From positions 104,537 through 168,536 of the IMG/VR virus record IMGVR_UViG_3300010430_000004: DNA of 64,000 bases; one strand, written 5' to 3'. Positions 2,427 to 51,782 of the stretch are shown here, piece by piece (the first letter of the stretch is position 1; each line of letters opens with the position of its first letter). Made by a program: the position numbers and the translations under genes. Below the pieces are notes generated by a model, which worked only from the letters and a program-made list of their open reading frames with translations, did no database searches and was not told the origin of the DNA. Origin of the DNA: a virus.

Positions 2427-3221
2427 ATGGATAAAGACAAAGTACTGCAAGCAGTAAATGACATTAAGAAAAAGTTTGCGACTGAAAGTGTAGATGAAGA
2501 ACAGGTGAAGGAAAGCTTCGTAGATAAGCTTAATGCCTTGCTACAATCTATTTTCGGAGATGATGTTGATGCTGCCTATGAGCTTCTTGAAAAAGGCGAC
2601 CTTTCTAATTATAGGAAGAGCTATATTAAACGATTAAGAAAATTTGTATATTCTAATCTGAAAAATTTCTTCTACGCAGCGTTTATGTTCAGTATTGTAG
2701 CATTTCTAGTATCTGAAGCTGTTACTTTTTATGCCGTTGATGGAGTGGTAGAATCTAAGACGTATATAAAGGCTATACTGACTGAAGTCAGTTTCATCTT
2801 TCTTTCCGGCTATGTAGCAACGACCAAATGGACCCAGGTAATAAGCAAATTACTCCTGGCTGGAGTATTTGGGCTTATGCTGTTTGTAATCTCTGCTGAA
2901 ACTCTTAAACAGGGAGAAGCAGGAAGTCAAGAGTCTGCTATTATTGCCCAACAGATTATCACACTAGAGACACAGATAAAAGAAAAAGAAGAATTGATTA
3001 AATACTATGTATCTATTGGTTGGCCAAGAAATGCCACAACTACTAGATTAGAGAAACAAAAATTAGTAGATAAGCTGCTATTACTAAAAGAAAAACAAGC
3101 AGCTGGAAAAAATGAAAGCGTTACTGACATTGAGCGTTATAAAAGTTATGGTAAGGCTTTCTTTAGAGTGATATTATTAATGATCAACTTACTTATTTCT
3201 AGAAGAGTGTTTAAGTTTTGA
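2427..3221 (+). CDS. Multi-pass membrane protein
   Basis: 264 residues. A charged N-terminal ~85 residues precede about three membrane segments (AAFMFSIVAFLVSEAV, EVSFIFLSGYVA, LLLAGVFGLMLFVI). A charged coiled-coil stretch (ITLETQIKEKEELIKYY, continuing to about residue 235) follows, then a last hydrophobic segment (VILLMINLLI). It is probably an inner-membrane protein of infected cells. No family is recognised; it is much larger than a typical holin. Confidence 0.7.
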   Translation: MDKDKVLQAVNDIKKKFATESVDEEQVKESFVDKLNALLQSIFGDDVDAAYELLEKGDLSNYRKSYIKRLRKFVYSNLKNFFYAAFMFSIVAFLVSEAVTFYAVDGVVESKTYIKAILTEVSFIFLSGYVATTKWTQVISKLLLAGVFGLMLFVISAETLKQGEAGSQESAIIAQQIITLETQIKEKEELIKYYVSIGWPRNATTTRLEKQKLVDKLLLLKEKQAAGKNESVTDIERYKSYGKAFFRVILLMINLLISRRVFKF

Positions 3222-3807: not shown

Positions 3808-4432
3808 TGGAATAGTCAAACAATTCGCCACTTCTGATTGGCACGTTGGACATCATAATGTTATTGATTTCTCTAACAGGCCCTTCAAGGATACTCGTGA
3901 TATGCACAGAGTATTGATTAATAATTATAACTCTACCGTACCTGAAGATGGCATTTGCTATTTTGTAGGCGACATGGGCATGGGAAATCCACTTACTCTT
4001 AAACACGTTATTAAAGAGCTAAACGGTACTAAAATTTTAGTACTAGGAAATCACGACAAAGGATTAAACAAGATGTACAGTCTAGGCTTTGACGTAGTAA
4101 CGTTTGGAGCGATCTTTGATATTTGTGGTGAGCAAGTAACAATGACCCATTGCCCTCTAAGAGACACATACAGAGAAGATACAAGCAAAATGAAAGAAGG
4201 CGAGCTTTGTCCTAACTGGCATGGTGAGCATAGAAAAAAATATAAAAAATATACCATTCCTAATTGGGGCCAATATCATCTTCACGGCCATATCCACTCT
4301 CCAAACTCTGGTCAATCAAAAAAGATTGAAGGTAGACAAATGGATGTTGGAGTAGATGCTAACGGATATCGCCCAGTAAGTTGGAGTGCCATTGAATCAT
4401 GGATAGCAAAGACTAAAAATGTCAAAGGGTAA
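3800..4432 (+). CDS. Calcineurin-like metallophosphoesterase
   Basis: 210 residues with the metallophosphoesterase signature in order: SDWHVGHHN (D13, H15), a GDM motif near residue 52, GNHD near residue 79, and GHIH near residue 158. These residues hold two metal ions that hydrolyse phosphomono- or phosphodiesters. The architecture is a lone catalytic domain. The substrate (nucleotide, RNA end or protein) cannot be told from sequence. It is one of four such genes in the window. Confidence 0.9.
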   Translation: MSNGIVKQFATSDWHVGHHNVIDFSNRPFKDTRDMHRVLINNYNSTVPEDGICYFVGDMGMGNPLTLKHVIKELNGTKILVLGNHDKGLNKMYSLGFDVVTFGAIFDICGEQVTMTHCPLRDTYREDTSKMKEGELCPNWHGEHRKKYKKYTIPNWGQYHLHGHIHSPNSGQSKKIEGRQMDVGVDANGYRPVSWSAIESWIAKTKNVKG

Positions 4433-4655
4433 TTTAAGCGTTTTTGCTGCCAATAAAACAAACTATAATGATGGAATTAATAAAAGAGAAGATTTTATTA
4501 CTAGAAGATGGTCAGCATATAGATTAGAAAAATTTGTAGGATTGAGAAGCTTTACTGATGCAGACTCCTACAATGATATGAGAAGTAATGGGTTCGCTTA
4601 TCCTCTTGATGAACACAATCATATAGAAGCTAGAAATAAGAAAGACAAAAAATGA
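4419..4655 (+). CDS. Small tandem paralogue A
   Basis: 78 residues, overlapping the phosphoesterase gene by 14 bases. It shares with the next two genes a core of the form W-x2-Y-x2-E-x-F/Y-V/I-G-x4-F-x2-A/T-D/E-N/S-Y (here WSAYRLEKFVG then SFTDADSYND). It is a member of a three-gene tandem family. No known family is recognised. Confidence 0.75.
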   Translation: MSKGNLSVFAANKTNYNDGINKREDFITRRWSAYRLEKFVGLRSFTDADSYNDMRSNGFAYPLDEHNHIEARNKKDKK

Positions 4656-4870
4656 GTAGGACTATAGTTAATTTTGGAAAAAAAGCAAACTATAATCCTA
4701 AAGTAAACACTTCAAGCCTTAGCATTAGAGAAAAATGGCACAAGTTTAGACACGAAACATACATAGGAATTGGCAATTTTTCTAATACTGATAATTATAA
4801 TAGTGGAGTTTCAGAAAATACGAATATAAAAGAAAACAAAAGTTCAGAAATGGTAAACTTAAATGAATGA
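4652..4870 (+). CDS. Small tandem paralogue B
   Basis: 72 residues, ATGA overlap. The core reads WHKFRHETYIGIG then NFSNTDNYNSG, aligning residue by residue with its neighbours. The N-terminal NFGKKANYNP also resembles paralogue A's VFAANKTNYND. Function unknown. Confidence 0.75.
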   Translation: MSRTIVNFGKKANYNPKVNTSSLSIREKWHKFRHETYIGIGNFSNTDNYNSGVSENTNIKENKSSEMVNLNE

Positions 4871-5078
4871 TGATTACATAAACAATATAATAGTAAAGAC
4901 TAAATATTCTTATTCTCTTAATGATAGAAGTTTTCACATGGAAACCCACTGGTCTAATTATTGTATGGAAGATTTCGTAAGTGTAGCTGGATTTACTAAT
5001 ACTGAAAATTACGATGAAATTGAAACAGAAGATATAGCCACGGATATAGAAGACCATGATCATTATAGCGACGAGTGA
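4863..5078 (+). CDS. Small tandem paralogue C
   Basis: 71 residues, 8-base overlap with paralogue B. The core reads WSNYCMEDFVSVA then GFTNTENYDE. The tail is acidic and His-rich (DIEDHDHYSDE), unlike the basic tails of A. Its 3' end overlaps the next phosphoesterase by 23 bases in another frame. Function unknown. Confidence 0.75.
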   Translation: MNDDYINNIIVKTKYSYSLNDRSFHMETHWSNYCMEDFVSVAGFTNTENYDEIETEDIATDIEDHDHYSDE

Positions 5079-5754
5079 TACTCATTATAGGCACGAAAAA
5101 GTGGAGCTAGCTCCAGGTGATGTGTTTATTCATGCCGGAGACAACAACGCTGGTGGACCAAGCTGTGCTCGTGATTTTATTGAATGGGTTGGCGAACTTA
5201 ATTACAAACATAAAATAATTATTGCAGGCAACCATGATAATGCCTTTGCCGATGATCCCAAGTATATTGAGCAATTATGTAAAGATAATGGGGTCATATA
5301 CCTAAACGATTCTGGAGTAGAGATTGATGGGGTTAAGTTCTGGGGAAGCCCATGGACACCTAAGTATGGATTAGACATTTATGTATTTAACGCTGCACGT
5401 TCAGTAACCGAACAAGCATTCTTAGGTTTTAAATATCCATTAATAGAAGAAAAGTGGGCTCTTATCCCTGAAGATACTGACGTATTGATTACCCACGGCC
5501 CAGCTTATGATGTTCTTGACGTAAACAAAAAAGGCATACCTTGTGGGTGCGTAGAGTTGAGAAAAGCCATAGAAAAAATAAAACCACAGGTTCATATCTT
5601 TGGTCACATTCACGAAGGCGCTGGAGATACTAAAATAAATGAGACTGAATACTATAACGTGGCTTACTTTGGTAAGATTACAAGGCACTCTCGTAACGAA
5701 TACACTATTGAAAAAAATCCAGCAAGCATGATTTATATTGACGATAATAAATAA
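5056..5754 (+). CDS. Metallophosphoesterase (MPPED-like)
   Basis: 232 residues with compact motifs: SDTHYRH (D and H for the first metal), HAGDNN, AGNHD and GHIHEGAG. The spacing and the ITHGP motif match the MPPED1/MPPED2-type branch of calcineurin-like phosphoesterases, which hydrolyse cyclic nucleotides or other phosphodiesters in studied members. A cytoplasmic enzyme is likely. It ends the first operon; the noncoding RNA region follows immediately. The substrate is unknown. Confidence 0.9.
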   Translation: MIIIATSDTHYRHEKVELAPGDVFIHAGDNNAGGPSCARDFIEWVGELNYKHKIIIAGNHDNAFADDPKYIEQLCKDNGVIYLNDSGVEIDGVKFWGSPWTPKYGLDIYVFNAARSVTEQAFLGFKYPLIEEKWALIPEDTDVLITHGPAYDVLDVNKKGIPCGCVELRKAIEKIKPQVHIFGHIHEGAGDTKINETEYYNVAYFGKITRHSRNEYTIEKNPASMIYIDDNK

Positions 5755-5759
5755 TTGAA

Positions 5760-6103
5760 TCTCCAGTCTGGACGGTGCGGTGTCGAAAGCCCACGTTCTT
5801 CCTGGACCGAGGGTTATGTGCGAGGCATATTAAAATGGTTGCTAAGATCTGCCCTTTACTTGTGGTATAGTCCATGAACTTACCACAGCCCCTAGAGATA
5901 GGTAGCTCCTTGATCTAGTAGAGGCTCTGCAAGCCTACACTGTTACTAGACGCGTCTAGACAGTTGTTTTTAAGCCCTATTATGGGCAGAACAAGCAGCG
6001 CATGGTGGATGTAGGAAACGCCACTAGGAGTCACAATCCTCTCAGCAGCTCAATGATACGGGGCAACAGCTGGAAAACTGTGAGGTTGCGGCTCGCTTTT
6101 TTT
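5760..6103 (+). ncRNA. Unidentified large structured RNA
   Basis: About 344 bases with no convincing reading frame and visibly higher G+C than flanking genes. Seen helices: TCTGCCC (~5848-5854) pairs with GGGCAGA (~5984-5990), extended by TGCT/AGCA, and encloses three hairpins (GTGGTA/TACCAC at ~5862-5886; AGGCT/AGCCT at ~5920-5938; CTGT plus the palindrome CTAGACGCGTCTAG at ~5940-5963). Further 3' are GTGG/CCAC and CAATCCTCTCAG with CTGTGAGGTTG, capped by CAGCT/AGCTG. It ends at an intrinsic terminator. No known family (RNase P, tmRNA, 6S) was matched by eye. Confidence 0.7.
6080..6103 (+). terminator. Intrinsic terminator of the structured RNA
   Basis: The stem GTGAG/CTCGC (one T-G pair) with a 7-base loop is followed by seven T. 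A second hairpin, GCTCA-AATC-TGAGC (6109-6122), lies just downstream. The stem is short, but GCGAG at ~5819 could also pair with the same CTCGC. Confidence 0.6.
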
Positions 6104-6171
6104 ATTCAGCTCAAATCTGAGCCGAGCAAAATCTTCAATAATTTCAATGACTTTATTCTCTAAAAATTTAC

Positions 6172-6200
6172 TAGCATTTTTTAATAATCCATGTTATATT
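6172..6200 (+). promoter_or_regulatory. Phage promoter, class TAGCAT-17-TATATT
   Basis: TAGCAT, 17 bases, TATATT with the extended element CATGT directly before the -10. Nine sites in the window share this layout. It serves the gene at 6222 and follows the RNA terminator. Confidence 0.85.
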
Positions 6201-6221
6201 TAACTCAACAAAGGAAATAAA

Positions 6222-6437
6222 ATGGTTTATTTAATAGTTGTAGGCTTAATATGTACCACAGGCACTATTGATTGTTATTCAAAAATAAATAACAAAGCCG
6301 AGAAAATAAACGTTACTAGAGAAATGACCAAAAAAGAGTGTGTAGAGAAGACAATGATTCTTAGAAAATATATAACAGACAATAAATTAGGAAAACCTAT
6401 AGTTGTTTGTAGAATAAACTGGGAGAAGGTACAATGA
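6222..6437 (+). CDS. Small protein with hydrophobic N-terminus
   Basis: 71 residues, first gene behind a promoter. The N-terminus (MVYLIVVGLICTTGTIDC) could be a signal peptide or anchor. Cysteines later in the chain (KKECVEKT, VVCRINW) would suit a periplasmic fold. No family is recognised. Confidence 0.7.
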   Translation: MVYLIVVGLICTTGTIDCYSKINNKAEKINVTREMTKKECVEKTMILRKYITDNKLGKPIVVCRINWEKVQ

Positions 6438-6850
6438 ATCCAAGAACGCCTAAATTTTTTAACAATGGAATTGAAGTCAAACACATTTCTGAGAAAAAAG
6501 GCAGAGGTGTATTTGCTACTCGTACTATTAAAAAAGGTGAAGTATTTGAAATAGCGCCCTGCCTAATAGTGCCCCATGATGAGAGTGAACTAGTAAACGA
6601 CACTTTTTTAGGTTTTTATACCTATTCTCCTCCAGGGCCAACTAAGGATGAGGATGAAGAAACATACGATGAGTGCTCAATTATTGCTCTTGGTTATGGA
6701 TCTTTATATAATACTAACAAGAACCCAAACGCTGACTATGCTGTTTATTATAACCATGCTAAATACTTTGCGCTAAGAACTATTAAAAAGGGCGAAGAAA
6801 TATTAATAAACTATGGTTGGGATGAGTCTTATACAAAGGATTTTGAATGA
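6434..6850 (+). CDS. SET-domain protein 1
   Basis: 138 residues, essentially a bare SET domain. It has the opening KGRGVFATRTIKKGE (S-adenosylmethionine-binding turn), a central GYGSLYN region matching the GxGSLxNH-type motif, and a closing IKKGEEILINYG strand. SET domains transfer methyl groups to lysine. The usual Asn-His pair is shifted here (YNTNKNPNADY), so activity is less certain than in the second copy at 52569. The target could be host or phage protein. Confidence 0.8.
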   Translation: MNPRTPKFFNNGIEVKHISEKKGRGVFATRTIKKGEVFEIAPCLIVPHDESELVNDTFLGFYTYSPPGPTKDEDEETYDECSIIALGYGSLYNTNKNPNADYAVYYNHAKYFALRTIKKGEEILINYGWDESYTKDFE

Positions 6851-7838: not shown

Positions 7839-8323
7839 TGGGCTTAGATATAGATGGAATAAAAATTATCAGAGAAGGAAAAACCGATGACACTGTTTTT
7901 GTATACGAAGGTTTTGAACGGTCCCTTAAAGATGAAGAAATAGTAAGTCTTGATTATGATGACGAAAATTGGGAATGCGTAGCTGACGGAATCTCTATGT
8001 CTTATGGATCATATAATGGATTTAGAAGAGTGCTGGCTGAAGCAGCCCTAAACACAAGTGTAGAAAATGTATGGAAATTGGCTGGAAATCTCAAAGATAG
8101 TGAACCTTATCCTTCTCCAATTTTTCATATACTTAATTTTGCAGACAATGAAGGTTTTATAGGCCCATCGGCTGTAAAAGAATTAGATAGTTATTTTGAT
8201 GAAAGACTTGAATATCTTAAGGAAGAGCTTTCGGATGATGAATACTATATGCACAAGGTTATTAGTTTAGCTGAATGTATTAAAGAAACTGCCAAAGAAA
8301 ATGGCTACTTGAGGTTTGGATAA
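7838..8323 (+). CDS. Hypothetical protein
   Basis: 161 residues. A TTG 15 bases upstream is also open, but the ATG in a TAATG overlap with the previous stop has GGGAGA at good spacing and is preferred. Acidic, mixed alpha/beta (IDGIKIIREGKTDDTVFVYE). No family is recognised. Confidence 0.7.
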   Translation: MGLDIDGIKIIREGKTDDTVFVYEGFERSLKDEEIVSLDYDDENWECVADGISMSYGSYNGFRRVLAEAALNTSVENVWKLAGNLKDSEPYPSPIFHILNFADNEGFIGPSAVKELDSYFDERLEYLKEELSDDEYYMHKVISLAECIKETAKENGYLRFG

Positions 8324-8898
8324 TGGGTAGAAAATTATCAAGGGCCTTGAACCCTAAACATGGTTGGCGAGAAGCTTTAGAAGATCTTAAGGATTTTTTA
8401 TGGTACGACCCAGCTAGTTGGTGTCGATCAAAAATTGAAATGCTTCAGAGAATGGTATATTGGGGCTGGCACATGAGATGGAGTTGGGACTTTGACGCTA
8501 GTACTATTTATGAAATGCTTTACAGAAAATTAGACAGAATTTACTGCTGTATGAGAGATCATTCCCATTGTGTATGGAACAGCAGCATCGAACAGCCTAG
8601 AATGAGAGAACTAAGAGAAGCTAGAGAAATCGCTAAAAGACTATGGGAAGATGACTATGATATGGCAGCTTTCTATGAGACTGAGGAAAAATACGGCAAG
8701 CTTAAATCATGGACTGAAAAAATTCCAAACAAACCTCTCTATAGATATCATTCTTTATGGGGAAATGACGAAGAAGTTGATAAGAAAGCTATAGTGTTTA
8801 ATCGTAGAAGAGATAAGCATTGGAGAGAAGTAAAAAAGCTTCATAAAGATCGTTTATTTTATTTGCTAAACAAAAACGTAGAGTATTGGTGGGACTGA
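8323..8898 (+). CDS. Trp-rich hypothetical protein
   Basis: 191 residues, TAATG start. Unusually rich in Trp, Arg and Tyr (YWGWHMRWSWDFDAS), largely helical, with the pattern W..D...IYEMLYRKLDRIY. Similar Trp-rich helical proteins are frequent hypothetical genes of large phages. Role unknown. Confidence 0.75.
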   Translation: MGRKLSRALNPKHGWREALEDLKDFLWYDPASWCRSKIEMLQRMVYWGWHMRWSWDFDASTIYEMLYRKLDRIYCCMRDHSHCVWNSSIEQPRMRELREAREIAKRLWEDDYDMAAFYETEEKYGKLKSWTEKIPNKPLYRYHSLWGNDEEVDKKAIVFNRRRDKHWREVKKLHKDRLFYLLNKNVEYWWD

Positions 8899-11625: not shown

Positions 11626-11866
11626 TTGGAGTGCTTGCTATATATGTCAGGGAGATTTGCCCGATGACTACGAGTATGCCACCTGTTGTTCAGGAAGGGA
11701 GTGTGGTTGTATGGGAATGCCTATAGAAGTTCCTATATGCTCTTATGATTGTGAAAGATTGAACGGTAGAATGTTTATGGATTATTCTATAGAAGTAAAT
11801 ATTAAAAGCTGGTATCCTGCTTGGCTGGTTAAATTAATAGTAAAATATAAGATTTGGAGAAATTAA
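11612..11866 (+). CDS. Cys-rich zinc-binding protein
   Basis: 84 residues. The first half carries ten cysteines (CYICQG, CCSGRECGC, PICSYDCE), enough for two zinc sites. An amphipathic helical tail (WYPAWLVKLIVKYKIW) could touch membrane. It sits directly before nrdB and overlaps it by one base. Redox or scaffold roles are possible; not assigned. Confidence 0.65.
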   Translation: MTDTNWSACYICQGDLPDDYEYATCCSGRECGCMGMPIEVPICSYDCERLNGRMFMDYSIEVNIKSWYPAWLVKLIVKYKIWRN

Positions 11867-42193: not shown

Positions 42194-42205
42194 GTTTTTA
42201 GTACG

Positions 42206-42268
42206 GTAGGCTACGGTGTGGTACCCTCTGTTGGCCAAACACCCAGGTTCGAATCCTGGGTAGCCTGC
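42206..42268 (+). tRNA. tRNA-like element lacking normal D/anticodon arms
   Basis: A canonical T loop (TTCGAAT) is closed by CCAGG/CCTGG, and the flanking AGGCTAC and GTAGCCT make a perfect 7-bp acceptor stem; the pairing extends to GTAGGCTAC/GTAGCCTGC. Between acceptor and T arm there are only 28 bases instead of ~41, so a full D arm plus anticodon arm cannot fit. A GTGTGG/CCAAACAC stem with two bulged A is possible. No CCA end is encoded. It may be a truncated tRNA, or a tRNA mimic in the leader of the 42288 gene. Confidence 0.55.
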
Positions 42269-42287
42269 CCGAATTTTTGGAGGAATT

Positions 42288-44015: not shown

Positions 44016-45533
44016 ATGAGAGATTTAAATGCAATGTTATTATGTGATTTTTATAAACTGAGCCACAGAGCTCAATACCCAACAGGTACAGAGAAAGTAT
44101 ACTCTACCTGGACCCCAAGAGCCAGCAGAATGAAGGGCGTAGACCATGTAGTCGCTTACGGTTTTCAAGGCTTTATCAAAAAATATCTTATTCAATTTTT
44201 TAACAATGAGTTTTTTAGTAGACCCATTGCAGAAATTACCGAACAATATTCTAGAATTATAAAAGGAACGCTAGGCGTAGAAGAGCCTGATTTTTCTCAT
44301 ATAGTTGCTTTACATAAACTTGGATATTTGCCGATTAAAATTAAAGCCCTTCCAGAAGGTACAAAAACCCCTCTAAGAGTTCCAATGATGACTATTCAAA
44401 ACACTCACAAAGATTTTGCTTGGTTGACAAATTACTTAGAGACTCTTGCCTCTTGTGAATTGTGGCAAGCCTGCACTAGTGCAACTATTGCTGACCAATA
44501 CCGTCAGATATTAGACAAATATGCCAACAAAACTGTAGGAAATACAGAGTTTGTTCAATTTCAAGGTCACGATTTTTCCATGCGTGGAATGAGCAGCTTA
44601 GAATCTGCTATGATCAGTGGTTCTGGACATTTACTAAGCTTTGCTGGTACTGATACCATTCCAGCTGTTAGTTATCTTGAAGAATATTATAATGCTGACG
44701 TAACTAAAGAATTAGTTGGTACAAGCATTCCAGCTACTGAGCACTCTGTTCAATGTGCTTATGGCAATGATGATCTTTACCTTAAAAGAATGATGACTGA
44801 GGTTTATCCTACTGGGCCAGTAAGTATCGTGTCTGACGGATATGATTTTTGGGATGTTATTGGTAGAGTTTTGCCTAGCCTTAAAGAAGATATTCTTGCT
44901 CGTGGTGGAGATCGTGGTCCAGAATTTTTGGATAAAGTAGTTATTCGACCTGATTCTGGTGATCCTGTAAAAATCGTATGTGGAGATCCATCAATAGGGG
45001 CTTTGATTAAAGATTTGGAAATATATTCAAAAGAAGATGAAATGATAGCAAAGGGTGCTGTTGAATGTCTATGGGATATTTTTGGTGGACACGTCAATGA
45101 ACAAGGTTATAAGGTTCTTAACCCTAAAATTGGTCTAATTTATGGAGATGCCATTACACTCAATCGTTGCGAAGAGATTTGTAAACAATTAGAAGCCAAA
45201 GGCTTTGCAAGCACTAACGTAGTGTTTGGTATTGGAAGCTACACTTACCAATATAACACCAGAGATACTTTTGGGTTCGCTCTTAAGAGCACTCTTTGCG
45301 TTATTGACGGAGATGAGAAACAAATTTTTAAAGACCCTAAAACTGATAATGGCATTAAAAAGAGCCAAAAAGGTCGGGTAGTAGTTCTTGAAAAGGATGG
45401 TGAGCTTACTTTTATGGATGGCCTATCTCTTGAAGATAAAATGAGCAAGGATCTTTTAAAGACAGTTTTTTGTGACGGTAAACTTGTAATTGACCAAAAA
45501 TTGGAAGATATTCGAGAAAGAGTAAGAAAGTGA
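44016..45533 (+). CDS. nadV: Nicotinamide phosphoribosyltransferase family (Nampt/Namat)
   Basis: 505 residues, full length for Nampt. Key residues align with human NAMPT: D213 (GTDT), H243 (ATEHS, the catalytic His), R311 and D313 (IRPDSGDP), and the late GIGSYTYQ stretch. Nampt joins nicotinamide to PRPP to make NMN. The NARP1 version (Namat) joins nicotinamide to ADPR-PP to give NAD+ in one step. No NMN adenylyltransferase was recognised in the window, which favours the one-step route, though it could lie outside. Confidence 0.93.
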   Translation: MRDLNAMLLCDFYKLSHRAQYPTGTEKVYSTWTPRASRMKGVDHVVAYGFQGFIKKYLIQFFNNEFFSRPIAEITEQYSRIIKGTLGVEEPDFSHIVALHKLGYLPIKIKALPEGTKTPLRVPMMTIQNTHKDFAWLTNYLETLASCELWQACTSATIADQYRQILDKYANKTVGNTEFVQFQGHDFSMRGMSSLESAMISGSGHLLSFAGTDTIPAVSYLEEYYNADVTKELVGTSIPATEHSVQCAYGNDDLYLKRMMTEVYPTGPVSIVSDGYDFWDVIGRVLPSLKEDILARGGDRGPEFLDKVVIRPDSGDPVKIVCGDPSIGALIKDLEIYSKEDEMIAKGAVECLWDIFGGHVNEQGYKVLNPKIGLIYGDAITLNRCEEICKQLEAKGFASTNVVFGIGSYTYQYNTRDTFGFALKSTLCVIDGDEKQIFKDPKTDNGIKKSQKGRVVVLEKDGELTFMDGLSLEDKMSKDLLKTVFCDGKLVIDQKLEDIRERVRK

Positions 45534-45970
45534 TAGTTGAAGAAATTCAAGGAAATCTTTTAGATACAACCGTGAGCGCAATTGCTCACGGTGTTAATTG
45601 TCAAAATACTATGGGTAGTGGAGTAGCTAAGGCCTTGTTTACCAAATGGCCTGAGATTAAATCTAAATACCATGATTTTTGCAACATGAATGGCCCATCT
45701 CACAGATTAAGCCAAGTTCAGGCCGTGAATACTGATGATAAAACTATATTGAATTGCTTTACTCAAGAGTGGTATGGTTATGATGGCAGAAAATATGTCA
45801 GCTATGATGCTATCTATGAGTGTTTCAATTTTATTTCTCAGTTTTATGACGAAGTAGCTATTCCAAAAATAGGCTGTGGCCTAGCAGGTGGTGATTGGAA
45901 TGTTGTCAAAGAAATAATAAATTCTGCTACTGGCAGCGACTGTAAAGTTTACGTTTATTATTTAAAATAA
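45530..45970 (+). CDS. Macrodomain (ADP-ribose-binding/hydrolase) protein
   Basis: 146 residues from a GTG overlapping the Nampt stop. A lone macrodomain: GNLLDT, HGVNCQNTMGSGVAKAL and IPKIGCGLAGGDW, the layout of Poa1p-type ADP-ribose-1''-phosphate processing and of de-ADP-ribosylating macrodomains. It should bind ADP-ribose. Its place as third gene of the NAD operon suggests it feeds ADP-ribose to the Prs-like enzyme or clears ADP-ribosyl marks. The reaction is inferred. Confidence 0.88.
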   Translation: MIVEEIQGNLLDTTVSAIAHGVNCQNTMGSGVAKALFTKWPEIKSKYHDFCNMNGPSHRLSQVQAVNTDDKTILNCFTQEWYGYDGRKYVSYDAIYECFNFISQFYDEVAIPKIGCGLAGGDWNVVKEIINSATGSDCKVYVYYLK

Positions 45971-46725: not shown

Positions 46726-47922
46726 ATGAGAACAATTAATTTAGATCAAAACGACAATGCTGATATTACAAAATTTCCAACCCTATACAAGCAAACCACT
46801 ACTGGAAAAATCCAACAGTGGCAGGTTCAAGTTTTTGGAAACGGAGTGACCTCTACTTATGGTCAAGTAGATGGCAAGCTTCAAGAAACTACTGACATTG
46901 TTAAATCTGGAAAAAATATAGGAAAAGCAAACGAAACTACCCCTGAAGAACAAGCAGGGCTCAAGGCTCAACAGCTTTTTGATAAAAAAGTAAAAGAGGG
47001 ATATGTTACAGATATCACCCTTGCTCAACAAAATGCTAACAACCTTGAAGGTGTCGAGCCTATGCTGGCCTTTGATGCTGAAAAGAAAAAGAAATATATG
47101 ACTTTTCCAGGAACAGGTCAGCCAAAACTAGATGGCTTTAGGTGTATAGCAGTTATTCAAAATGGAAAATGCCAACTATACACTCGTACTCAAAAACCTA
47201 TCAATACGCTTCCTCATATAGTTCAAGAATTAGAACAAGTGTTTGGTACAGCAAAATCTATAGTTTTGGATGGAGAACTTTATAATCACGAATTGAAAAA
47301 TGATTTTGAAAAGATTTGCTCCTATATTAAAAGAGACGAAGTACATGAGAATCACGAAATTATTCAGTACCATATCTATGATCATGTTTCCGAAGGGACT
47401 CACCATCAAAGATATTCCATGGTTAACGCTGCTTTAAATATAAGAATGGTACCTTGTATGTTTTTGAAAACAGTAGAAACAGTTACAGTTAACTCTGAAC
47501 AAGAATTAGAGGCTTTTTTCCACAAATGTTTAGCAGATGGCTATGAAGGCGCAATGTATCGTCATCCTGAAATGGAATATGAACACAAACGATCAGCTGG
47601 TTTACTCAAAATTAAAGTTTTTGAAGACGCTGAGTTCGAAGTTACTGGTGTTCAAGAAGGCACTGGTAAACTCATGGGCCAAGCAGGGGCTATCCTTGTT
47701 AAGGACTCTGACGGAAAAGAATTTAAAGCCAAACTAAAAAGTCTTACGGATAGCAACGGCAAACGTGTAGAAAGCAAAGAAGACTATCAAGCAAGATGCG
47801 CTGATTGGCTAGTCAATATTGAAAACTATATAGGAAAAATGATTACTGTTCAATATCAGGGCAAAACCAAACACGGAATTCCACGGTTTCCTATAGCCCT
47901 TAGAATCAGGGAGGCAGAATGA
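46726..47922 (+). CDS. ATP-dependent DNA ligase with WGR domain
   Basis: 398 residues from the ATG behind GGAGG; the frame extends upstream but that would overlap the microprotein. Residues ~15-95 are WGR-like (TLYKQTTTGKIQQWQVQVFG, then TYGQVDGK), a nucleic-acid-binding module best known from PARPs. The nucleotidyltransferase core has K134 in PKLDGFR, VLDGELY, EGAMYR and LLKIK, followed by an OB domain. It seals nicks during replication and repair. Confidence 0.92.
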   Translation: MRTINLDQNDNADITKFPTLYKQTTTGKIQQWQVQVFGNGVTSTYGQVDGKLQETTDIVKSGKNIGKANETTPEEQAGLKAQQLFDKKVKEGYVTDITLAQQNANNLEGVEPMLAFDAEKKKKYMTFPGTGQPKLDGFRCIAVIQNGKCQLYTRTQKPINTLPHIVQELEQVFGTAKSIVLDGELYNHELKNDFEKICSYIKRDEVHENHEIIQYHIYDHVSEGTHHQRYSMVNAALNIRMVPCMFLKTVETVTVNSEQELEAFFHKCLADGYEGAMYRHPEMEYEHKRSAGLLKIKVFEDAEFEVTGVQEGTGKLMGQAGAILVKDSDGKEFKAKLKSLTDSNGKRVESKEDYQARCADWLVNIENYIGKMITVQYQGKTKHGIPRFPIALRIREAE

Positions 47923-48128: not shown

Positions 48129-48499
48129 AATTTTTTAATAGATTTTCTTATTATAGAGACAAAAATGAAGACGTTTATGTAAACTTGGGCGTTTCTTGGA
48201 TCTGGGATAGATACGTTAATGTAGTGCCTTCTCAGGAAACTCAAAGTTTCCTATCTAAAGTTGGCTGGGGTGGACCCAAAGGGAAAGGGATCAGTAGAAC
48301 TTTTACTTTTTATTTATATACTAGAAAATATGTCAGAATGTTTACTATTGATTTTAGCACTATTGAAAGGCCGTGGACAACTGAAGAATTAAAAAGCGCA
48401 CCGACTGAAATGGATAAATATAATGAGAGAATGAAAACTGTTAGAGAACTATCCAAAAGACTGGGAAGACACAAAAAAACTTCAAATAATGATATTTAA
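48125..48499 (+). CDS. Hypothetical basic protein
   Basis: 124 residues, ATGA overlap. Beta-rich, aromatic and basic (RTFTFYLYTRKYVRMFTIDF). Unknown; could bind nucleic acid. Confidence 0.65.
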   Translation: MKFFNRFSYYRDKNEDVYVNLGVSWIWDRYVNVVPSQETQSFLSKVGWGGPKGKGISRTFTFYLYTRKYVRMFTIDFSTIERPWTTEELKSAPTEMDKYNERMKTVRELSKRLGRHKKTSNNDI

Positions 48500-51322: not shown

Positions 51323-51590
51323 AAACGGACAATTTTGGATGGAAGCTAGTATAGCAACCAACGATGATGATAAAATACTTGAAGTCACTGCTGGACCCTA
51401 TGATTATAACGCCAATACAGATGGGTTTAAGGTAACTATAAAAAGCTGTGATATAAAAGATCCAAAAATATATACAGAGCTTTGGCTAACCCCTAGAGAA
51501 CTTGATAGTGTTGCCAAAATGTTTGCTGCTGTTAGAAAGCATCACAATACTATGGCTAAATATGAAAAAGGAGATAAGGATGAGAATTGA
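51312..51590 (+). CDS. Hypothetical protein
   Basis: 92 residues, 11-base overlap. Beta-rich first half, helical second half (LTPRELDSVAKMFAAVRKHH). Unknown. Confidence 0.65.
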   Translation: MKSKNGQFWMEASIATNDDDKILEVTAGPYDYNANTDGFKVTIKSCDIKDPKIYTELWLTPRELDSVAKMFAAVRKHHNTMAKYEKGDKDEN

Positions 51591-51774
51591 TATTTGTGTA
51601 GTTTTAATTAGTGCCTTTATCGAAAAGAACCAAATCTGGCTTGCTGGCTCACCTGGATGCCAATTTGCTGAGGTTTATAGTGTTGCCCAAGATAATGGCG
51701 ATGAAGAAATTATGGCTTGCCTAGACAGGGTAGATGAGCTTGGAATGGTTGAACACTGCTTTAGCGAGCTATAG
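51580..51774 (+). CDS. Small acidic protein
   Basis: 64 residues from the ATG behind AAGGAG; the longer frame from 51502 lies over the previous gene. Begins RIDICVVLISAFIEKNQIWL, acidic end. Unknown. Confidence 0.6.
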   Translation: MRIDICVVLISAFIEKNQIWLAGSPGCQFAEVYSVAQDNGDEEIMACLDRVDELGMVEHCFSEL

Positions 51775-51782
51775 GAGAGGTT

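What the first reader, a model, noticed from the sequence alone, without database searches (positions are those of the whole stretch)
5760..6103. Large structured noncoding RNA of unknown family
A 344-base gene-free stretch in a genome with almost no gaps. A closing helix TCTGCCC/GGGCAGA, flanked by TGCT/AGCA, encloses three strong hairpins, one a 14-base palindrome. A second domain has an 11-bp interrupted stem. An intrinsic terminator ends it. It matches neither RNase P, tmRNA, 6S nor a group I/II intron core by eye. Large phages carry several poorly understood structured RNAs, and this could be a new one.
Basis: seen in the sequence. Interest (0 to 1): 0.82.

Follow-up and report, generated by a model that had tools for sequence, protein, structure and literature searches.

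The report
Orphan GC-rich phage noncoding RNA candidate
A 350-base gene-free, unusually GC-rich stretch at the end of a phage operon is a fair candidate for a noncoding RNA gene, but no relative of it was found anywhere searched and its hairpins are no stronger than chance, so a new RNA family is not shown.

Summary
The stretch is real. 5755-6103 lies between a phosphoesterase gene and an AT-rich promoter, has no coding signal and matches no Rfam family. In the full-length ensemble the TCTGCCC/GGGCAGA 'closing helix' does not reach 25% probability.

What does stand out is composition. At 49% G+C in a 36% genome, only 0.06% of equal-sized windows are as GC-rich, and other intergenic gaps average 32%. 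A long GC-rich gap in an AT-rich genome is a published signature of bacterial ncRNA genes (GC-IGR). The same phage's other GC-rich gaps include a tRNA, a tRNA-like element and a hammerhead-like core.

A 67-nt interrupted stem ending in T7 gives an intrinsic-type terminator. One of 16 phage promoters sits just downstream and none close upstream, so it reads as an operon-3'-end RNA rather than a leader. It lies in an 8.6-kb accessory insertion absent from seven relatives.

BLAST, single-sequence covariance models and exact-pattern scans found no homologue, so covariation is untestable. Verdict: plausible orphan ncRNA, new family unproven.

The parts
5755..6103 (+). Candidate noncoding RNA (5' end not known; placed after the stop codon of the upstream gene)
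   Evidence: No ORF with coding signal, no PHROG match in six read-through frames, G+C 49% vs 36% genome, no Rfam match
5755..5836 (+). 5' part, no stable fold of its own
   Evidence: z +0.18
5837..6000 (+). Central multibranch domain if it folds alone: GTTGCT 5838-5843/AGCAGC 5994-5999, TCTGCCC 5848-5854/GGGCAGA 5984-5990, hairpin 5860-5888, palindrome 5946-5959
   Evidence: Fold -54 kcal/mol, z -2.74 uncorrected; not significant after scan correction
6003..6026 (+). Hairpin TGGTGG/CCACTA
   Evidence: Pair probability 0.92
6028..6103 (+). Long interrupted stem (GAGTC/GGCTC, CAA/TTG, CCTC/GAGG, CAG/CTG, CAGCT/AGCTG) followed by T7 at 6097-6103: intrinsic-type terminator
   Evidence: Pair probabilities 0.90-0.96; terminator scan hit 6080-6096 (shuffles give 0.8 on average)
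6170..6203 (+). Phage promoter (consensus ACTAGC.TTTTT....AA.CCATGTTATA.TAAA) of the next operon; marks the downstream limit
   Evidence: One of 16 sites in the genome, 43.5 bits; nothing above -9 bits between 3000 and 6170
5056..5754 (+). Upstream gene: calcineurin-like phosphoesterase
   Evidence: Pfam PF00149 E 1.4e-12
6434..6850 (+). Downstream gene: SET-domain protein
   Evidence: Pfam PF00856 E 1.6e-15

Best explanation
The stretch encodes a noncoding RNA of about 350 nt on the + strand. It is made as the 3' tail of the operon ending with the phosphoesterase gene (read-through from upstream; no phage promoter of its own found), ends at a long intrinsic-type terminator at 6097-6103, and is probably released or stabilised by that 3' stem as a trans-acting accessory RNA of the phage. 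Shown: no coding signal, high G+C, terminator-like end, downstream promoter, position in an accessory insertion. Inferred: that it is transcribed, accumulates as a separate RNA and has a function. What it acts on is unknown; a role in host takeover or counter-defence is a guess from its place among accessory genes.
For: G+C 49% against 36%, only 0.06% of 344-nt windows as high, while other gaps average 32%. Length plus G+C of intergenic regions in AT-rich genomes is the published GC-IGR criterion for ncRNA genes (PMC6429828). Other GC-rich gaps in this phage include a tRNA, a tRNA-like element behind a phage promoter and a hammerhead-like core. No coding homology. Terminator stem with pair probability 0.9 or more. 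Promoter of the next unit starts 67 nt downstream. The flanking conserved genes (window 2427-3221 and RNR beta 11854) are adjacent (14-56 nt) in seven relatives, so the RNA sits in an 8.6-kb accessory insertion.
Against: Folding energy and helix counts are at chance. No homologue in the phages or plasmids collections, in whole records of relatives, or by pattern scans, so no sign of conservation. No upstream promoter of the phage's recognised class. High G+C could also mark foreign or decayed DNA.
Confidence: 0.5

Rival explanations
1. It is only an operon end: an intrinsic terminator (6028-6103) preceded by about 270 nt of foreign or decayed DNA left by gene turnover in a variable region, with no RNA function beyond termination.
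For: Helices at chance level, whole-fold z -0.88, 5' part unstructured, no conservation found, location in an accessory insertion with high gene turnover.
Against: No trace of a former protein in six frames. G+C is far above gene and gap averages. Phages usually remove dead DNA (general knowledge).
Confidence: 0.35
2. It is a long regulatory leader (riboswitch or attenuator) whose terminator controls the downstream 6222-6850 genes.
For: A structured stretch followed by a terminator upstream of a co-oriented gene is the layout of an attenuator.
Against: A strong phage promoter (43.5 bits) lies at 6170-6203, between the terminator and the next gene, so that gene has its own start. The terminator stem has no convincing antiterminator partner in the ensemble. 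No riboswitch family matches.
Confidence: 0.08
3. It is a very diverged member of a known RNA family (RNase P, tmRNA, 6S, group I/II intron, GOLLD/ROOL) that Rfam models miss.
For: Phage RNAs diverge fast. A hammerhead-like element elsewhere in this phage scores only 15 bits against an Rfam gathering score of 56, so Rfam may miss such elements here.
Against: Nothing credible even at E<=5 with relaxed filters on 651 bases. GOLLD members often exceed 800 nt (PMC12286853). No group I/II core and no interrupted gene.
Confidence: 0.07

Closest known systems
GC-IGR ncRNA candidates (Breaker laboratory pipeline, PMC6429828)
   Same: Long intergenic region with G+C far above the other intergenic regions of an AT-rich genome, no protein homology, no Rfam match
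   Different: That pipeline goes on to homologues and consensus structures; here no homologue was found
GOLLD and ROOL RNAs of phages and prophages
   Same: Phage-encoded large noncoding RNA of unknown function
   Different: GOLLD often exceeds 800 nt, both are often near tRNA islands (PMC12286853), and both are in Rfam; no match here and the only tRNA called is some 59 kb away
T4 stable RNAs C and D (from memory, not tested)
   Same: Small noncoding RNAs of a large myovirus with unknown role
   Different: Shorter and in the tRNA cluster; no sequence comparison was made
Operon-end 3' UTR RNAs with an intrinsic terminator
   Same: Co-directional with the upstream gene, ends at a terminator stem with a T run, no own promoter found
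   Different: Longer and much more GC-rich than other gaps of this phage

Membership tests
GOLLD / ROOL | Match to the Rfam covariance model | tested here: not met
   No hit at gathering score or at E<=5
RNase P RNA / tmRNA / 6S RNA | Match to the Rfam covariance model; tmRNA called by ARAGORN | tested here: not met
Group I or group II intron | Conserved catalytic core (Rfam model) and an interrupted gene | tested here: not met
   No model hit; the upstream phosphoesterase is complete against Pfam
Structured ncRNA class in general | Covarying base pairs across homologues | not testable with these tools
   No homologue found
Structured ncRNA class in general | Folding more stable than composition-matched sequence | tested here: not met
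   z -0.88 whole; scan-corrected domain not significant
GC-IGR ncRNA candidate | Long, GC-rich outlier among intergenic regions, no protein match | tested here: met
   criterion from PMC6429828
Intrinsic terminator | GC-containing stem directly followed by a T run | tested here: met
   Stem 6028-6094 with T7 at 6097-6103
Riboswitch / attenuator leader | Same transcript as the gene downstream | tested here: inconclusive
   A separate strong promoter lies between terminator and gene, which speaks against it; transcripts not measured

The most novel reading that the evidence does not exclude
A new class of phage noncoding RNA of about 350 nt, with a central multibranch domain and a terminator-capped 3' domain, acting in trans as an accessory (for example counter-defence or host-takeover) RNA.
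Probability: 0.15. Interest if true: 0.6.

Novelty: new member of a known kind. Interest (0 to 1): 0.3.

Why it matters
If real, it would add one more orphan RNA to the poorly charted noncoding repertoire of large phages, and this phage appears to carry several such elements. As it stands it suggests that GC-rich-gap analysis can pick out RNA candidates in a single AT-rich phage genome, while by-eye helix spotting does not separate them from chance.

Tried and rejected
Homologue searches that led nowhere: blastn against phages and plasmids; tblastn and synteny with Mx1, the closest cultured relative; whole records of 35 pol III-alpha relatives and 18 phosphoesterase relatives, whose weak short hits (under 45 nt) were discarded; single-sequence covariance models R1 and R2 on 49 records (one hit at E 0.28 judged chance) and 73 loci; four exact 16-18-mers in viral and genome contigs, all in unrelated context. 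All 8 viral scans and the single genome scan are spent. One viral scan with the 1692-2318 protein confirmed no relative. TROVE/Y-RNA idea: no TROVE protein in the record. Paralogues inside the genome: none. Antisense targets: longest complement 13 nt, as in shuffles. Decayed protein: no PHROG hit in six frames. Gaps of relatives G007 and G012 near the orthologous phosphoesterase looked promising but read as missed coding sequence by eye. A sliding z-score run over the whole genome timed out and was replaced by a 160-window sample. A literature search for Mx1 found nothing.

Full report
SETTING. The window is bases 104537-168536 of a 168,536-base IMG/VR virus record, G000. It is a tailed phage with DnaE-type polymerase, class I ribonucleotide reductase, GroEL and terminase genes. 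The closest cultured relative is Myxococcus phage Mx1 (DNA polymerase 32% identical, terminase 31%). Uncultured relatives reach 43% in the polymerase and about 60% in some proteins.

OBSERVATION. Between the stop codon of a calcineurin-like phosphoesterase (5056-5754; Pfam) and the next start at 6222 there is no ORF with coding signal, and six-frame read-through has no PHROG relative (one hit at E 0.48). Rfam 15 has no match at gathering score in the window and nothing credible at E<=5 around the stretch.

IS IT MORE THAN CHANCE? By structure, no. Perfect helices of 7 bp or more number 3 against 2.83 in dinucleotide shuffles. The whole stretch folds with z -0.88, and the opposite strand with z -1.62. 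The hand-cut central domain gives z -2.74 with 0 of 150 shuffles as good, but repeating the domain scan on shuffled sequences shows this is not exceptional. By composition, yes: 49% G+C against 36% for the genome, reached by 0.06% of windows, while gaps of 60 nt or more average 32%. This length-plus-GC signal is the published GC-IGR criterion for bacterial ncRNA genes (PMC6429828). The gene calls behind the gap statistics are a simple codon-usage scheme that leaves some small genes uncalled (for example window 51591-51782), so gap counts are approximate.

SURROUNDINGS. Sixteen copies of a phage promoter (ACTAGC.TTTTT....AA.CCATGTTATA.TAAA) were found; one sits at 6170-6203, directly downstream, and the nearest + strand copy upstream is at record position 100414, about 10 kb away. 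The RNA therefore appears to lie at the end of one transcription unit, closed by the stem 6028-6094 with T7, and the SET-domain operon downstream starts afresh. That makes a riboswitch-like leader unlikely. The membrane-protein-like gene at 2427-3221 and the RNR beta gene at 11854 are neighbours (14-56 nt apart) in G002, G012, G003, G018, G005, G009 and G006. In this phage 8.6 kb of small accessory genes plus the RNA lie between them.

RELATIVES. None was found: blastn against 50,697 phage records and 72,556 plasmids; whole records of relatives by DNA and by single-sequence covariance models, plus 73 further loci; exact-pattern scans (with contexts). Single-sequence models are weak, so distant homologues could be missed. 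Covariation, the decisive test, cannot be run.

MECHANISM. Best supported is an operon-3'-end noncoding RNA of about 350 nt ending at the intrinsic-type terminator, with an unknown trans role (0.5). The main rival is a plain operon end with foreign or decayed DNA in front of the terminator (0.35). A leader or attenuator (0.08) and a diverged known family (0.07) are less likely. Transcription and function are inferred, not shown.

VERDICT. A fair ncRNA candidate for reasons of composition and context; a new structured family is not demonstrated. More striking RNA-like elements elsewhere in the same phage are listed under Noticed in passing.

Noticed in passing
L095:11530-11600 (record G000 51530-51600, outside the window): A good tRNA by Rfam (48 bits) whose anticodon loop reads as only 5 nt (CCCCT-CGTTG-AGGGG); ARAGORN gives a two-base anticodon. 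It looks like a tRNA that cannot decode, possibly a decoy.
   Followed up: partly
window 42205-42269: tRNA-like element directly behind a phage promoter (42163-42196): long acceptor helix GGTAGGCTA/TAGCCTGCC, a T-arm with TTCGAAT, one small arm and no anticodon arm. Not called by ARAGORN; weak match to the tRNA-like mascRNA model, 15.8 bits.
   Followed up: partly
L095:7165-7215 (record G000 ~47165-47215, outside the window): Hammerhead-like core ACGC-CTGATGA-GGATTACC-GAA-ACATAGAAATATGT-C-GCGT in a GC-rich noncoding gap. Rfam RAGATH-1 hammerhead gives 15 bits (gathering 56); my motif scan finds it, with few hits in shuffles but also other, looser hits in phage sequence.
   Followed up: partly
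L095:4216-5197, 5582-5785 and 8137-8337 (record G000 44216-45197, 45582-45785, 48137-48337): Further long GC-rich gaps with no coding signal; the last has a tRNA-like outline (AAGTAG...GGTGCGAGTCCGGCCTACTT), though it does not fold as one by MFE. Together they suggest a cluster of noncoding RNAs in this phage.
   Followed up: partly
window 6170-6203 and 15 other sites in record G000: Phage promoter family with consensus ACTAGC.TTTTT....AA.CCATGTTATA.TAAA (extended -10 type), usually a short distance before a ribosome-binding site.
   Followed up: yes
window 4419-5078: Three consecutive small ORFs (78, 72, 71 aa) look by eye like tandem paralogues (FVGLRSFTDADSYN / YIGIGNFSNTDNYN / FVSVAGFTNTENYD), just upstream of the phosphoesterase.
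   Followed up: no
L082: An 8.5-kb contig from another record carries a terminase 100% identical to this phage's, so the species recurs and could supply near relatives.
   Followed up: no
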